From the NCBI RefSeq assembly GCF_001761485.1, contig NC_090774.1:682001-746000 (forward strand): a stretch of DNA of 64,000 bases, given 5' to 3'. Each line of letters opens with the position of its first letter. The stretch's first letter is position 1. The translations under genes and the position numbers were made by a program. Below the pieces are notes generated by a model. It was not told the DNA's origin. It did not search any database and was given only the letters and a program-made list of their open reading frames with translations. This DNA is from Yarrowia lipolytica (lineage: Eukaryota; Ascomycota; Dipodascomycetes; Dipodascales). Shown in pieces: positions 12,156 to 21,026 of the stretch.

Positions 12156-12601
12156 GTGAGTATCTACCCCTCCACACAACGTCTCTGACTGATCGCTGCT
12201 CATCATCGCCAATCTCCCGAGTGCAAATCCGACTATCACGCTGATCAGTGCTAACATAGTACAAGTGTCTGGTGCATAAGATTCAAACTTACCCAGTACT
12301 TGGCTCTGTGAGTACGAGGATCCCCTGCAACTGTGGGGACCCCCTGTTGGGAGAGCACCTGTCACTGATACGCGACTGGCACTGAACGGGAATATCCAGG
12401 GTTAATCAGTGGCGGCCATTCCCTCTCATTCGGGGTGGTGTGTTGGATACTTTTCGCTGTAAGGTGCAGGCCCACCACAGGCAGGGTCTTAGCGTGGCAC
12501 TAAAATGCTGCTTTACTGGGCAGACAGCAGGCTGCCACGCTACCAATTGCAAGCCAATGTCAATGCCCACAAAATTTTCTGCAACAATGTACTAACAACA
12601 G
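12156..12601 (+). other. Predicted 5' UTR intron, 446 nt
   Basis: The donor GTGAGTATC at 12156 matches the consensus of this genome. The acceptor is TACTAAC-AACAG, ending at 12601, three bases before the ATG at 12605. The branch point sits almost on the AG, as in Yarrowia introns. Splicing joins untranslated leader to the start codon without changing the protein. Confidence 0.72.
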
Positions 12602-12604
12602 ATA

Positions 12605-15584
12605 ATGAAGTTCTCAATTGTGTTGCCCCTTGCGGGTGCACTCCTGGCTGCTGCTGGTCCTATTCAGCAGCACCCCATGGAGGGCTGTGTCCCCCGAAGT
12701 GTCTTCGACCTTGATGGTTGTCTCGACACTTGCAACGATTTCCTCGTCAGCGACTCTGACCCCGAGCAGGTGAGTATCCACCCCCCGTTTTGAAAAACTG
12801 TCTCACTATGATGTTTCACGAGGGCAGCCATATGGTGATCTTTCTACTCGTTTAGGCGGGGTGTCAAAAGCTTAAAGGCTTAGACGTGAACGCACCAGAA
12901 GTGCTTTTGTGCACCCCTCCCAACTCTATTTTGACACCACCGTGTTGTTGTGATGCTTGAGCGGTAAACTCAACCTCACAACCTCACAAACACCACACAA
13001 TCACAGAAACTAACAATAGTGCCTGCAGTGCCTGACTGTCTATGAGCTCGACAACAAAAACACCGTGCTCAGCACCCTGGAGGAGCAGGGCCTCCCCATG
13101 CAGCCTGAGGTGCCCGTTTGTGGTGTCTCCGCCCCCATGATTACCCCCGGCCCCGCTATTCCCGTTCTCGCTAAACGAGCTCCCATCTCCACCGTCACAT
13201 CTTGCTCTGCTCCTCCCAGTGATCAGCAGACCTGTTTCAACCAGTGTGCCGCTGTCATTCGAGACATTGCTCTTTGTCTGGGCATCCAGTCCTGCATTTG
13301 TGACCGAATCTCTAAGACCCTGGACAATATCAACAACTGTCTGGATTGTGTGACCCATTTCACTGCCCTGAACAACATCCTGGATATCCCCAACCAGATT
13401 GTCAAGTTCCTGGCCGGCTGCAGCCAGCCCACTACTGCTGAGCCCGTTTGTGTCACCAGTGTCATTGATCCTGATGTGACTTGTGAACCTCCTCAGGTGT
13501 CCACCACCTGTACTGCTCCTCCCAAGCCTAACCTGTCTTTCTTGCAGTGTACCCAGACTTGTACCAGCATCATCACCAACGTCGGTCTATGTCTGGGTGT
13601 TAAGGATTGCGTGTGTTCGCGGCTGATTGGTCTCACCTCTTCCATCGCTACCTGCCTGTCCTGTATCACCATCTTCGACCTGTCGGCCATCCCTAACCTG
13701 GCTACTGGTCTGCTCAACTGGCTTGGAAACTGTGGACTGGACGCTGGTCAGACTCTGCAGTGTGATACCAGCACCACTCCCGGTGCTTGTCAAACCATCG
13801 CTCCTCCTTCGTCGTCGACCGTCGAGGCCACCACAACTTCGGCTGAGTCTTCTTCGTCTGAGGCTCCTTCTTCGTCTGCTGCTCCTTCCAGCTCTGCATC
13901 TTCCGAGGGACCTTCCTCCACCGAAGCTTCTTCGTCTACTGAGGCTCCCTCTTCTTCTTCCGAGGCTCCCTCTTCTTCTTCCGAGGTTCCCTCTTCTTCT
14001 GAGGCCCCTAGCTCTTCCGCTGCCGAGTCCTCGACCGAGGCTGCCTCTTCCACTGATGCTGCTTCATCGACTGAGGCTCCCGCTTCTTCTTCCGAGGCCC
14101 CCAGCTCCTCTGCTGCCGAGTCTTCCACTGAGGCTTCCTCCGCTCCCAGCTCTTCTGATGCTGTCTCCAGCACTGAGGCTCCCAGCTCCTCTGACAACTC
14201 GGCTGCTTCTTCTACCACAGATGGATCTGGCGCTTCTTCCACTGATACTGGTGCTTCTTCAACTGATACTGGTGCGTCTTCTACTGATGCTGGTGCTTCT
14301 TCCACTGATGCTGGTGCTTCTTCCACTGATGCTGGTGCTTCTTCTACTGATGCTGGTGCTTCTTCCACTGATGCTGGTGCTTCTTCCACTGATGCTGGTG
14401 CTTCTTCCACTGATGCTGGTGCTTCGTCCACTGATGCTGGTGCTTCGTCCACTGAGACTGGTGCTTCCACTACCGACAACTCAGGTGCTTCTTCCACTAC
14501 CGACAACTCCGGTGCTTCTTCCACTACCGACAACTCCGGTGCTTCTTCCACCGCCTCTAACACTGACGGCTCTGGATCTTCCACTGATGGTTCTGGATCT
14601 TCCACCACTGACAACTCTGGCCAGTCTTCTGTCCCCAGCTCTGTCACTGCTCCTCCTTCTTCTGCAACAGGCCCTGTTGCTACTACGATCACTTCTTGCA
14701 GCTCCATCACCTACCCCAAGGAGACCTGTATTCAGAAGTGCAGTGATGTCATCAGCCAAATCGCTCTCTGTGTTGGCGTGAAGCAGTGCATCTGTGACCG
14801 ACTCCTTACTCTCAACGACAACGTCAACGCCTGTCTATCTTGTGTCACCTACATTGACTTCACTGGTATCTTTGATATTCCCGGTCAGCTTCTCCAGTTC
14901 CTTGGCCAGTGTGATGTTGCTACTACCCCTACTGAGGTTTGCACCACTCAGACTATTGACCCCAACGTGTCGTGTGAGCCCGATGTCACTTCATCCACTT
15001 GCTCTGTCGTTAACCCCTTTGATCTCACTCTGTCCCAGTGCATGACCACTTGTACTGGTGTTATCTCCTCCGTCGGTCTGTGTGTCGGTCTCCAGTCTTG
15101 TATCTGTGATCGACTTGCAAACTCTGCCAAGGATGTTGGTGACTGTATCCAGTGCCTCTCTCTCTTCGATCTTGGCAACATCCCCTACCTCGCTGCCAAC
15201 TTCCTCAACTGGCTTGGAAAGTGTAACGTTCAGTCTACTGCCTCTTCCAACTGTGTCTACCAGACCATCACCGGCGAGTGTGTCACCAAGACCCCAGCCA
15301 CTTCTGAGGCCATTACGACATCTGCTGAGCCTTCTTCCTCTGCAGGACCATCTCCTTCAAGCTCTGTGACTGATACCACTCCTTCTTCCACTGGCTCTGG
15401 ATCTGGCGAGTCCTCCTCCGCTCCTTCCTCTACTGGCGGTGCTGGCGAGTCCTCAACTACAGGTGGTGCTGGCGAGTCCTCTACTACTGGCGGTGCTGGC
15501 GAGTCCTCTACTACTGGCGGTGCTGGTGAGTCCTCTACTACTGGTGGTGCTGGCGATTCCTCTACTACTTTCTTTTCTGTTTAG
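12605..15584 (+). CDS. Repetitive CFEM-like cell-surface protein, ends at TAG
   Basis: Predicted CDS is join(12605..12769, 13020..15584), 909 residues. Exon 1 encodes a signal peptide (MKFSIVLPLAGALLAAAG). The intron 12770-13019 has donor GTGAGT and acceptor CTAACAATAG; an alternative acceptor at 13028 is also in frame. Four cysteine modules follow: two before the Ser/Thr repeats (near 13200-13790) and two after them (near 14690-15260). Each runs C-x3-C-x9-C-x5-C-x-C-x12-C-x2-C-x23-C with small variations. This resembles fungal CFEM domains, but the CFEM aspartate is mostly absent, so the label is tentative. Between the module pairs lie Ser/Thr-rich linkers and eleven heptads of the ASSTDAG type. 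The likely role is cell-wall adhesion or surface binding, by inference. The product ends in STTFFSV and lacks a GPI signal, which is encoded 2.2 kb downstream in the same frame. Confidence 0.75.
12770..13019 (+). other. Coding intron of the surface-protein gene, 250 nt
   Basis: Donor GTGAGT follows the codons for PEQ, and the branch point and acceptor are CTAACAATAG. Splicing is in phase 0 and brings CLQC directly after the exon-1 cysteine region. The CAG at 13026-13028 could serve as a second acceptor nine bases on, removing three residues. Confidence 0.8.
14230..14470 (+). repeat. 21-bp tandem array encoding ASSTDAG heptads
   Basis: Eleven consecutive heptads: two ASSTDTG, eight ASSTDAG and one ASSTETG. 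They are followed by three STTDNSGA-type units. The Ser/Thr density suggests an O-mannosylated stalk. Confidence 0.9.
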
Positions 15585-16132
15585 TCTGGCGGTGCTGGTG
15601 AGTCCTCTACTACTGGCGGTGCTGGCGAGTCCTCTACTACTGGCGGTGCTGGTGAGTCCTCTACTACTGGCGGTGCTGGCGAGTCCTCTACTACTGGCGG
15701 TGCTGGTGAGTCCTCTACTACTGGCGGTGCTGGCGAGTCCTCTACTACTGGCGGTGCTGGTGAGTCCTCTACTACTGGCGGTGCTGGCGAGTCCTCTACT
15801 ACTGGGGGTGCTGGTGAGTCCTCTACTACTGGTGGTGCTGGCGAGTCATCTTCTGCTCCTTCCACTACTGGTGGTGCTGGCGAGTCCTCCACTACTGGCG
15901 GTGCTGGTGAATCCTCCACTACTGGTGGTGCTGGCGAGTCCTCTACTACTGGCGGTGCTGGTGAGTCCTCTACTACTGGCGGTGCTGGTGAGTCGTCTTC
16001 TGCTCCTTCCACTACTGGTGGTGCTGGTGAGTCGTCTTCTGCTCCTTCCACTACTGGTGGTGCTGGTGAGTCCTCTACTACTGGTGGTGCTGGCGAGTCC
16101 TCTACTACTGGCGGTGCTGGCGAGTCCTCTGC
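15434..16132 (+). repeat. 27-bp tandem array encoding GGAGESSTT
   Basis: More than twenty copies of a nine-residue unit, several extended by SSAPSTT. Many units contain GTGAGT, the donor consensus of this genome. The array flanks the TAG at 15582-15584 on both sides, in one frame. Confidence 0.9.
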
Positions 16133-16209
16133 TACCGGACAGTCTACTGATGGCAACAACTCCAACACCAACACAGGCGCTTCGGAGACTGGTTCTAACA
16201 CTGCCTCTA

Positions 16210-16745
16210 CTACTAGCGGTGACGGTAACAACTCTGGTTCCAACACTGCTACTCAGACCGGTTCTAACACTGCTACCCAGACTGGCGGCAACGGCAACAA
16301 CTCTGGTTCCAACACTGCTACTCAGACCGGTTCTAACACTGCTACCCAGACTGGCGGCAACGGCAACAACTCTGGTTCCAACACTGCTACTCAGACTGGC
16401 GGCAACGGTAACAACTCTGGTTCCAACACTGCTACTCAGACTGGCGGCAACGGTAACAACTCTGGCTCCAACACTGCTACTCAGACTGGCGGCAACGGCA
16501 ACAACTCTGGTTCCAACACTGCTACTCAGACTGGTGGCAACGGCAACAACTCTGGTTCCAACACTGCTACTCAGACTGGCGGCAACGGCAACAACTCTGG
16601 TTCCAACACTGCTACTCAGACTGGTGGCAACGGCAACAGCTCTGGTTCCAACACTGCTACTCAGACTGGTGGCAACGGCAACAACTCTGGTTCCAACACT
16701 GCTACTCAGACTGGCGGCAACGGCAACAACTCCGGTTCTAACACT
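16210..16745 (+). repeat. 45-bp tandem array encoding [15 protein letters not shown]
   Basis: About eleven copies of a 15-residue unit, two of them with an inserted [11 protein letters not shown] and SNT make potential N-glycosylation sites in every unit. Confidence 0.88.
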
Positions 16746-16809
16746 GCTACCAACTCCGACGATAACACTGCTTCTCCTACATCTTCCGCTGCTACCACCT
16801 CTACCACTG

Positions 16810-17098
16810 GTGGAAACGGTGGAAACGGAGGCGACAACGGCGGAAACAACGGCGGAAACGGAGGCGACAACGGCGGAAACAACGGTGGAAACAACGGTGG
16901 AAACGGCGGCTCTGATGGTGGCAACAACGGAGGTAACAATGGCGGTTCCAACGGTGGAAACAACGGTGGAAACGGCGGCTCTGATGGTGGCAACAACGGA
17001 GGTAACAACGGCGGTTCCAACGGCGGAAACGGCGGCTCTGACGGTGGCAACAACGGAGGTAACAACGGCGGTTCCAACGGCGGAAACGGCGGCTCTGC
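16810..17098 (+). repeat. Gly/Asn-rich repeat ([13 protein letters not shown] type)
   Basis: Nested six- to eighteen-base Gly/Asn repeats with a longer unit containing [18 protein letters not shown]. Low complexity is maintained in the same frame as the cysteine modules. Confidence 0.85.
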
Positions 17099-17110
17099 TG
17101 GCGACAACGG

Positions 17111-17727
17111 CTCTGGCTCTGGGTTCTGGCTCCGGCTTCCGGCTCTGGCTTCTGGCTCCGGCTCCGGCCTTCTGGTTCCGGCTCCGGCTCTGGTTTCAGG
17201 CTCTGAGGGGCTCTGGCTCTGGCCTCTGGCTCTGGCTTCCGGCTCTGTGGCTCTGAAGGCTCCCGGATCTGGTTCTGGCTCTGGCTCTGGCTCTGGGCTC
17301 CGGCTCTGGCTTCTGGCTCTGAGGGCTTCCGGATCTTGTGTTCTGGCTCTTGGCTCTGAGGGCTCCGGTTCTGGCTCTGGTTCCGGCTCTGAGGGCTCCG
17401 GCTCTGGCTCTGGTTCCGGCTCTGAGGGCTCCGGCTCTGGCTCTGGTTCCGGCTCTGAGGGCTCTGGCTCTGGCTCTGGTTCCGGCTCTGAGGGCTCTGG
17501 CTCCGGCTCTGGTTCCGGCTCTGGCTCTGGCTCTGGGCTCCGGCTCTGGCTCTTCGGCTCTGGGCTCTGGCTCTGGTTCCGGCTCCTGGCTCTGGTTCCG
17601 GGCTCTGGCTCTGGCTCTGGCTCTGGATCCGAGGGCTCCGGCTCTGGCTCTGGTTCCGGCTCTGGCTCTGGCTCTGGCTCTGGATCCGAGGGCTCCGGCT
17701 CCGGCTCTGGCTCGGAAGGACCTTCTC
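17111..17727 (+). repeat. Gly/Ser repeat (GSGSGSEGS), with frame excursions
   Basis: GGCTCT-type hexamers encode GSGSGSEG units. In three stretches (about 17121-17265, 17293-17357 and 17536-17612) the same hexamers lie in another frame and encode L, W, R and A instead, before the frame returns. The net frame is kept through to the GPI signal. Confidence 0.85.
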
Positions 17728-17801
17728 AGGCCAACTCTGCCTCCACTTTTGGCGTTTCTGCTGCCATGATGACTATTATGGTCATGGCAGTCCTCTTCTA
17801 A

Positions 17802-19927: not shown

Positions 19928-21026
19928 ATGTTCCACGCATTGGGGTGAGTATAGAAAGGAAACGCTGCAGAAAGATACCGACACGTTGACTCGCTATCGG
20001 GACAACTAACATAGCTCCATCGCCTCGGTGGTATTCCCCATCTTTGCCTCTTATCGAGCCATTAAATCTCACGACATGACCTACGCAACCCCCTGGCTCA
20101 AATACTGGGTGGTCATGGGCATCGAACAGGCGCTCGAAAACACATTTGGAGTTGTCCTGTCAGTTCTGCCCCTCTACTCGCTAGCCAGACTCGTTTTTTT
20201 CGCCTGGCTGGTGCTGCCCCAGTCCCAGGGCGCTGTGCGACTCTACGACGAGAAAGTCGAGCCCTTCCTCGACCGTTACAATACACAGATTGAGGACTTC
20301 TTTGCCAACGGCCACACATATGTGCGAGACTACGGCCTGCAGTACCTCTCTGTGCTAGTTAAATGGCTCACCGGAAAAGGTTTCGACACAGAAGCAGCCA
20401 AGAGCACCAGCGCCAACCCCGCTCCTGCCACTCCCGTGGTCCCACAGTCCTACATGGACTCTGTGATGGGCTACATCAAGTCCAACAGCCCTGCCACAGG
20501 TGGCAAAATCACGCGGCTGTTCGACATGTACCGAGCGGCCGGAGCGGTTGGCGGTGCAGTAGGCTCTCGAGAGGTAACAGAGACCGTGGAGATCCCCTCG
20601 TCTCTGCCGCACTCCGAGCAGCTGGGTCTCATAGACAAGGAGCGCTCTAGACTACTGGCTGCTCTGTCGTCTCTTGATGCTCGTGGATCTTTGCTCAAGA
20701 GCGACACAAAGTCGAAATCGAATGCCTCGCTGGCTTCGGGTGTCAACATCACCGCCTCAGACTACTCTCCCTTGTTGGCCTCTTCTTCTGACACTGAATT
20801 TGACGTTGTCAAGTCGGAAGATGTGCTTGGACTTGATGGGAACGTGAAGGACGAACGTCCCAACTCAAGGGGCTGGTTCTGGCAGCGTCACTACTCCAAG
20901 GTTGGCGAGGCCAACAAGGCTGGCTACGAGAAACTCGTAGATCCCCCATCTGAGCCTCCTGTATCTGGGGCGAGTATGGCTCGAGAATCAGAGGAGGAGG
21001 AGCCTCTCATTCCCTCCAACCTGTAA
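19928..21026 (+). CDS. TB2/DP1/HVA22 (REEP-like) membrane protein, micro-exon
   Basis: CDS is join(19928..19944, 20015..21026), 342 residues. The first exon is only 17 nt (MFHALG split). The 70-nt intron runs from GTGAGTATA to CTAACATAG, and splicing restores GSIASVVFPIFASYRAIK. This family shapes and tubulates the endoplasmic reticulum. The TB2/DP1/HVA22 domain covers about residues 7-95, with hydrophobic hairpins and the family signatures YRAIKS, LKYWVV and FFAWLVLPQSQGA. The remainder is a hydrophilic cytosolic tail with Ser-rich and acidic stretches, ending ESEEEEPLIPSNL. The short N-terminus and long tail resemble metazoan REEP1-4 rather than yeast Yop1. The gene is convergent with MGM101, with 182 bp between stop codons. 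Confidence 0.88.

What the first reader, a model, noticed from the sequence alone, without database searches (positions are those of the whole stretch)
15570..15587. 18-bp insert with TAG splits a giant GPI-type surface protein
Regular 27-bp units (GGAGESSTT) are broken once by TTC TTT TCT GTT TAG TCT. The frame before it holds a signal peptide and four CFEM-like modules. The frame after it stays open for 738 codons and ends in a GPI signal. The truncated product would be secreted rather than wall-anchored. A switch between secreted and anchored forms, an allele broken in this strain, or an assembly error are all possible. Splicing from the repeat's GTGAGT donors to this TAG shifts the frame, so a simple intron does not explain it.
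Basis: partly seen in the sequence, partly recalled or inferred. Interest (0 to 1): 0.85.

Follow-up and report, generated by a model that had tools for sequence, protein, structure and literature searches.

The report
Stop-bearing insert in yeast surface gene
A repeat-rich surface-protein gene, apparently from the yeast Yarrowia lipolytica, carries a short stop-containing insert that looks like a recent local insertion or a sequencing error in a hard-to-read gene, and nothing found so far makes it a working secreted-or-anchored switch.

Summary
The 18 bp (15570-15587, TAG 15582-15584) are there, between 27-bp GGAGESSTT units. Gene order suggests Yarrowia lipolytica, probably gene YALI0E05819g (inference). 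The insert is secondary: a C/T alternation between units runs unbroken across it, and 15 counted units behind the TAG differ only synonymously (16 to 0).

(1) The '738 open codons' cross a Gly-Ser block needing 16 one-base insertions and 4 deletions, which looks like unpolished sequence. (2) CFEM is unsupported by Pfam, PDB or fold, though cysteine spacing partly resembles it. (3) The intron argument tested only splicing to the TAG. GTGAGT 15526 to ACCAAC-A-CAG 16176 is an in-frame 651-nt candidate that would remove the TAG, but with a rare branch motif, 58% GC, and such an acceptor in 10-18% of synonymous shuffles.

Best reading: recent nonsense insertion giving a 909-aa product without anchor (0.42). 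Main rival: artefact (0.35). No other strain, reads, RNA or whole genome could be searched.

The parts
12156..12259 (+). probable 5'-UTR intron (GTGAGT ... GCTAAC-A-TAG)
   Evidence: consensus motifs; consensus from passages of PMC2911113 and PMC13309789
12308..12601 (+). probable second 5'-UTR intron (GTGAGT ... ACTAAC-AA-CAG), ending 3 nt before the ATG
12605..12769 (+). coding exon 1, 55 codons, starts with a signal-peptide-like stretch MKFSIVLPLAGALLAAAG
   Evidence: signal peptide judged by eye, no predictor run
12770..13019 (+). probable intron, 250 nt, GTGAGT ... ACTAAC-AA-TAG, phase 0
13020..15584 (+). coding exon 2 up to the TAG; with exon 1 a 909-aa product
13203..13430 (+). cysteine module 1 (9 Cys)
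13509..13739 (+). cysteine module 2
14697..14921 (+). cysteine module 3 (closest to module 1, 43%)
15000..15230 (+). cysteine module 4 (closest to module 2, 42%)
15435..16136 (+). 27-bp GGAGESSTT array, 24 units (3 of them 39 bp, the last irregular) plus the 18-bp insert
15570..15587 (+). 18-bp insert TTC TTT TCT GTT TAG TCT, 28% GC; boundary ambiguous by 2 bp (shared CT)
15582..15584 (+). in-frame TAG
15526..16176 (+). candidate in-frame intron (exitron), 651 nt, GTGAGT ... ACCAAC-A-CAG, phase 1 to phase 1, would remove the TAG; not shown to be used
16260..16733 (+). 45-bp array [15 protein letters not shown], 10 units counted, coherent frame behind the TAG
17091..17712 (+). Gly-Ser block that needs 16 one-base insertions and 4 deletions to keep its codon pattern, probably unpolished sequence
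17713..17801 (+). C-terminal GPI-signal-like end ([25 protein letters not shown] stop)
   Evidence: judged by eye, no predictor run

Best explanation
The gene is an ordinary GPI-type wall or surface protein of a Yarrowia yeast, probably Y. lipolytica YALI0E05819g: signal peptide, four cysteine modules, long Ser/Thr/Gly/Asn repeat stalk, GPI signal. Its 27-bp array expanded as coding sequence. Afterwards an unrelated T-rich 18-bp filler, with a 2-bp CT overlap at its edge as expected of end-joining repair, was inserted in this strain, and it happens to contain TAG. The allele as written would give a 909-aa protein with signal peptide and all four modules but without most of the stalk and without the anchor, so it would be secreted, from an mRNA with a very long 3' remainder that nonsense-mediated decay should reduce. 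Shown: the insert, its frame, its secondary position in the array, and coding-like divergence behind it. Inferred: species, gene name, that it is real DNA, end joining, secretion and decay.
For: The insert interrupts a run of 12 units (units 3-14) whose fourth codon alternates GGC/GGT without a break across it, so it came after the array had expanded. It has no detectable source in the gene: the best ungapped match is 12 of 18, reached or exceeded by 115 of 200 shuffled inserts. Behind the TAG the 15 counted 27-bp units (of 19) show 16 synonymous and 0 non-synonymous codon differences, and 10 units of the 45-bp array 11 and 1. The frame tracker finds 0 indels in the three arrays between 15588 and 17090. 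So the stop is recent, absent in reality, or not effective. The array around it reads cleanly. In Y. [quoted passage not shown]
Against: The same gene has a stretch that looks like sequencing noise, and the unit just before the insert carries the only GAT at codon 5 in 24 units, which could mark a bad patch. No second strain, reads or RNA could be examined; the window's genome is not held. Repeat units share ancestry, so the synonymous counts are not independent events, and the 21-bp array in front of the TAG shows a weaker excess (7 synonymous, 4 non-synonymous in 11 units). The alternating run was picked after seeing it, so its shuffle value (0.0023) overstates the case. A 2-bp overlap is expected by chance once in 16.
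Confidence: 0.42

Rival explanations
1. Sequencing or assembly artefact: the 18 bp (and perhaps the GAT beside it) are not in the genome, and the array is uninterrupted.
For: The Gly-Ser block of the same gene needs 16 one-base insertions and 4 deletions to stay in its codon pattern; 16 of 16 inserted bases equal a neighbouring base (17 of 18 at the mildest penalty). Held-out tests on five other stretches of the gene gave 0 indels in 9 of 10 and 1 insertion in one. That is the pattern of unpolished consensus. [quoted passage not shown] The published W29/CLIB89 assembly bridged Illumina contigs with PacBio reads (PMC5014426, passages), but it is not known that the window is that assembly.
Against: The noise is more than 1.5 kb away and of another type (single bases). 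The 27-bp array itself has no frame error, and an 18-bp, in-frame, cleanly bounded foreign stretch is unusual for base-calling noise. In so simple a sequence an inserted base can often be placed beside an equal one, so the 16 of 16 is weaker than it looks.
Confidence: 0.35
2. The TAG lies in an in-frame retained or removed intron (exitron): donor GTGAGT 15526, branch ACCAAC, acceptor CAG ending at 16176. Spliced mRNA keeps the frame and encodes an anchored protein with a shorter stalk; unspliced mRNA ends at the TAG.
For: Phase 1 on both sides, 651 nt. GTGAGT is the donor in 73.0% and CAG the acceptor in 79.5% of canonical Y. lipolytica introns, a 1-nt branch-to-acceptor distance is typical (72.5%), and 651 nt lies outside the size classes with lower efficiency (PMC13309789 section 27). 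It is the only branch-plus-CAG/TAG composite (at most 1 mismatch, 0-2 nt apart) in 13020-17801. The donor at 15526 is the only GTGAGT of the array in front of the TAG.
Against: ACCAAC is not among the six motifs listed, which together make 95.7%. The candidate's GC is 58%, a range with lower splicing efficiency. Synonymous codon shuffles give at least one such in-phase acceptor in 10.0% (15588-16763) and 17.7% (15588-17090) of 1000 runs, and donors are about what codon usage gives (9 against a mean of 7.8 behind the insert; 1 against 2.9 in front). Introns of length 3n are underrepresented (PMC2911113 abstract).
Confidence: 0.12
3. The stop is read through by some ribosomes, giving secreted and anchored forms from one mRNA.
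For: The codon pattern behind the TAG is maintained.
Against: The context GTT TAG TCT is none of the leaky contexts I recall (TGA CTA; TAG CAA TTA; from memory, no call). The recency of the insert explains the maintained frame as well.
Confidence: 0.04
4. Direct alternative splicing from the intron donor 12770 to the TAG at 15584, skipping all four modules in frame.
For: Phase 0 on both sides.
Against: No branch-like motif in 15400-15584, while 94.4% of introns of this yeast show a branch-to-acceptor distance of at most 10 nt. Length 2815 nt, beyond the top of the longest size class named in that section (700-1826 nt).
Confidence: 0.01

Closest known systems
GPI-anchored, repeat-rich yeast wall proteins and adhesins (FLO/MUC1/STA1 type; class recalled)
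   Same: signal peptide, N-terminal folded part, long Ser/Thr-rich tandem-repeat stalk, C-terminal hydrophobic GPI-like end; YALI0E05819g is described as similar to STA1 in PMC3691278 (passage)
   Different: cysteine modules without a Pfam match; stop in the array; Gly-rich units
CFEM proteins (Rbt5/Csa1 type)
   Same: eight of the nine cysteines per module begin C-x3-C-x9-C-x5-C-x1-C-x12-C, within the CFEM formula quoted in PMC9684206 (passage); several modules plus a GPI-like end
   Different: last two spacings are x2 and x22-23 instead of x3-4 and x15-16; no P two before and no A/G after the first of these cysteines; no Asp between the third and fourth in 3 of 4 modules, and in module 2 it stands directly before the fourth, outside the formula; no Pfam or PDB match
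Truncated flo genes in deposited yeast genomes
   Same: repeat-rich surface gene that appears truncated (PMC6868369, passage)
   Different: here the break is a clean 18-bp foreign stretch between intact repeats

Membership tests
CFEM domain | match to the CFEM profile | tested here: not met
   Pfam-A: 0 families at E <= 0.1 for two module pairs and for exon 2 up to the TAG; 0 families for any of the 4 modules at E <= 10, within HMMER's filters
CFEM domain | eight cysteines with the CFEM spacing (formula quoted in PMC9684206, passage) | tested here: inconclusive
   five of seven spacings fit in 4 of 4 modules, the last two do not; the P and A/G around the first cysteine are missing
CFEM domain | conserved Asp, needed for haem binding in Rbt5 and Pga7 (PMC4183699, passages) | tested here: not met
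   between the third and fourth of the eight cysteines the modules read LGIQS, LGVKD, VGVKQ, VGLQS; the D of module 2 is outside the formula's spacing, the other three have none; haem binding itself not testable here
CFEM domain | helical-basket fold | tested here: inconclusive
   AlphaFold model of module 1 from a 4-row alignment, pLDDT 76, pTM 0.53, five helices; Foldseek against PDB: 13 matches with E <= 10, 0 with E <= 0.001, none named CFEM; the second aligner was not available
GPI-anchored wall protein | N-terminal signal peptide and C-terminal GPI signal in one reading frame | tested here: not met
   both ends are present by eye, but a TAG lies between them and the Gly-Ser block departs from its codon frame 20 times
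Y. lipolytica spliceosomal intron (15526-16176) | GTGAGT donor, CAG/TAG acceptor, branch motif 1 nt before the acceptor | tested here: met
   GTGAGT, CAG, distance 1; the branch motif has one mismatch and is not among the six listed motifs
Y. lipolytica spliceosomal intron (15526-16176) | more than chance expects | tested here: not met
   present in 10.0% and 17.7% of synonymous shuffles of two ranges
Y. lipolytica spliceosomal intron (15526-16176) | spliced transcripts | not testable with these tools
   no RNA data on hand
Programmed stop read-through | leaky stop context | not tested
   only compared with contexts recalled from memory

The most novel reading that the evidence does not exclude
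A stalk-length and anchoring switch by exitron splicing: GGT/GGC wobble at one codon decides which repeat units are GTGAGT donors, one acceptor just behind the array serves them all in phase, and the 18-bp stop makes the choice decisive. Only splicing from the single donor in front of it gives an anchored protein with a short stalk; every other transcript gives a free, secreted four-module protein or is decayed.
Probability: 0.06. Interest if true: 0.75.

Novelty: new member of a known kind. Interest (0 to 1): 0.25.

Why it matters
If the insert is real, one strain of an industrial yeast has lost the anchor of a large surface protein whose probable locus tag is reported as down-regulated in a mutant of Znc1, a regulator of the yeast-to-hypha transition (PMC3691278, passage and title). 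If it is an artefact, it is a warning that repeat-rich surface genes are mis-stated in the assembly, including the frame of the Gly-Ser block. The in-frame repeat donors plus one acceptor are a cheap, direct test of whether arrays can be trimmed by splicing.

Tried and rejected
Looked for the insert's source: no second match with up to 3 mismatches in the window, longest exact shared words 9 bases, best gene match no better than shuffled inserts. Looked for relatives of the modules: none confirmed in genome contigs or viral contigs (17 and 9 pattern matches, none confirmed by tblastn; these collections hold prokaryotes and viruses, so a fungal relative was hardly to be expected). PDB by sequence: one match at E 0.96, to a fibroin chain, for the first module pair, none for the module profile.

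Rejected: splicing from 12770 to the TAG (no branch motif). Rejected: a founding divergent unit as source of the insert (the alternation runs across it). Rejected: long-standing pseudogene (coherent frame and synonymous divergence behind the TAG).

Counts dropped: from the 27-bp codon count the three 39-bp units and the last unit (16110); 20 of 24 units were counted, 5 in front of the TAG (5 synonymous, 1 non-synonymous) and 15 behind. Frame tracker: three penalties gave 16/4, 16/4 and 18/3 insertions/deletions for the Gly-Ser block; six control regions trained on themselves gave 0; of ten held-out tests one (14226-14640) gave 1 insertion. In front of the insert (13020-15569) the acceptor composite was found 0 times where 59% of synonymous shuffles have at least one. 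One search translated exon 2 in a wrong frame and was not used.

Papers: for the locus tag I searched prefixes YALI0E0570, 0572, 0574, 0577, 058, 059 (4 papers) and YALI0E0579, YALI0E05819g, YALI1_E06, YALI1_E07 (3 papers; PMC12650647 not opened). PMC8546617 was listed for YALI0E058 but its held main text has no occurrence. The listings gave nothing that I used; only PMC6868369 was opened. I do not claim that the allele is unreported.

Full report
Where it is. Pfam names the neighbours: EBP2 (6283), a TB2/DP1/HVA22 (Yop1-like) protein (20028), MGM101 (21209, minus), a protein mannosyltransferase (30141), an AMP-binding enzyme (33394), an ABC transporter (35885), a carboxylesterase (40032, minus), a ubiquitin E1 (45214, minus) and a phospholipid methyltransferase (49917, minus). 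One paper lists YALI0E05819g, YALI0E05841g (membrane traffic), YALI0E05863g (mitochondrial genome maintenance) and YALI0E05907g (peroxisomal membrane) as a cluster (PMC10935855, one passage); the second and third fit the genes at 20028 and 21209, the fourth I did not match to a gene here. The lipase/esterase Lip20 is YALI0E05995g (PMC9526294, passage), which fits the carboxylesterase. The order fits Y. lipolytica, with the surface gene as YALI0E05819g. That is inference from order and tag numbers; the strain is unknown and no genome is held. PMC3691278 (passage) calls this tag similar to STA1 and reports it down-regulated in a znc1 mutant; PMC10935855 calls it a putative RNA helicase, a label that a Gly-rich sequence could attract (my guess).

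Gene model. Splice motifs fit the published consensus (GTGAGT; ACTAAC about one nucleotide before CAG/TAG; PMC2911113 passages; PMC13309789 passages and section 27). They give two probable 5'-UTR introns, coding exon 1 (12605-12769), a 250-nt intron and exon 2 from 13020. The frame runs to the TAG at 15582-15584: 909 aa with a signal-peptide-like start, four cysteine modules and Ser/Thr-rich linkers. Modules 1 and 3 and modules 2 and 4 are the closest pairs (43% and 42%; the other four comparisons 31-36%), which suggests duplication of a pair.

The modules are not shown to be CFEM. Pfam gave no family for any of them, the PDB profile search no match, and a moderate AlphaFold model of module 1 (pLDDT 76) no significant PDB fold. 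The first five of seven cysteine spacings do follow the CFEM formula quoted in PMC9684206 (passage), but the last two differ and no module has an Asp at the formula's place in front of CxC. An Asp conserved in most CFEM proteins is needed for haem binding by Rbt5 and Pga7 (PMC4183699, passage).

The insert. It lies between units 5 and 6 of 24. Codon 4 alternates GGC/GGT from unit 3 to unit 14 with no break across it (the run was chosen after seeing it). The unit before it holds the only GAT at codon 5. The insert is 28% GC, against 59% for the array with the insert. Its edge shares CT with the left flank. It therefore entered an array that already had its present local structure, in reality or in the assembly.

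Selection behind the stop. Against the consensus unit, the 15 counted 27-bp units behind the TAG have 16 synonymous and 0 non-synonymous codon differences; the five in front have 5 and 1; the 45-bp array has 11 and 1 in 10 units; the 21-bp array in front has 7 and 4 in 11 units. Units are copies of each other, so the binomial values overstate the case, but an old pseudogene would not be expected to look like this.

The end of the gene. The Gly-Ser block 17091-17712 is the weak point. A codon model trained on its clean part, or on its last 109 bases, needs 16 insertions and 4 deletions (18 and 3 at the mildest penalty). In one search, 16 of 16 insertions (17 of 18 at the mildest penalty) equal a neighbouring base. 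They fall in two clusters around a clean stretch (about 17352-17536). Controls: six other regions trained on themselves gave 0, and ten held-out tests gave 0 indels in 9 and 1 in one. The final frame is regained because the net is +12; the frame followed has no stop in the block, the other two have 2 and 6. So the open frame to the GPI-like end is in part luck. I read this as sequencing noise; real frameshifts in a released gene are possible but would have to spare the 1.5 kb before them.

Introns. The ten array GTGAGT donors are all in phase 1, and the 20 AGs of 15527-16140 all lead to phase 0, so no splice inside the array keeps the frame. But the first phase-1 AG behind 15526, CAG ending at 16176, has ACCAAC one nucleotide before it, the geometry of this yeast's introns. 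GTGAGT 15526 to 16176 is 651 nt, in frame, and contains the TAG as its only in-frame stop. Against it: an uncommon branch motif and high GC, and presence in 10.0% and 17.7% of 1000 synonymous shuffles of two downstream ranges. In the whole window, 20 plus-strand and 26 minus-strand sites match the same loose composite. It is a candidate to test, not a finding.

Conclusion. The most economical account is a recent nonsense insertion (0.42) or an artefact (0.35). Nothing here needs a new mechanism.

Noticed in passing
17091-17712: Gly-Ser block with 20 single-base indels against its own codon pattern (16 insertions equal to a neighbouring base, 4 deletions), in two clusters, 17 of 19 gaps between them 8-26 nt; probably unpolished sequence, so the C-terminal protein sequence as written is unreliable.
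   Followed up: yes
15526-16176: In-frame candidate intron from a repeat-unit GTGAGT donor to ACCAAC-A-CAG just behind the array; nine further array donors are in the same phase.
   Followed up: partly
13203-15230: Four cysteine modules (9 Cys each, 75-77 aa) arranged as a duplicated pair, without Pfam or PDB matches, with partly CFEM-like cysteine spacing.
   Followed up: partly
12156-12601: Two probable 5'-UTR introns, the second ending 3 nt before the ATG.
   Followed up: no
12605-17801 (gene level): The probable locus tag YALI0E05819g carries conflicting labels in print: similar to STA1 glucoamylase (PMC3691278) and putative RNA helicase (PMC10935855); neither is borne out by the Pfam scans here, which found no family.
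   Followed up: partly
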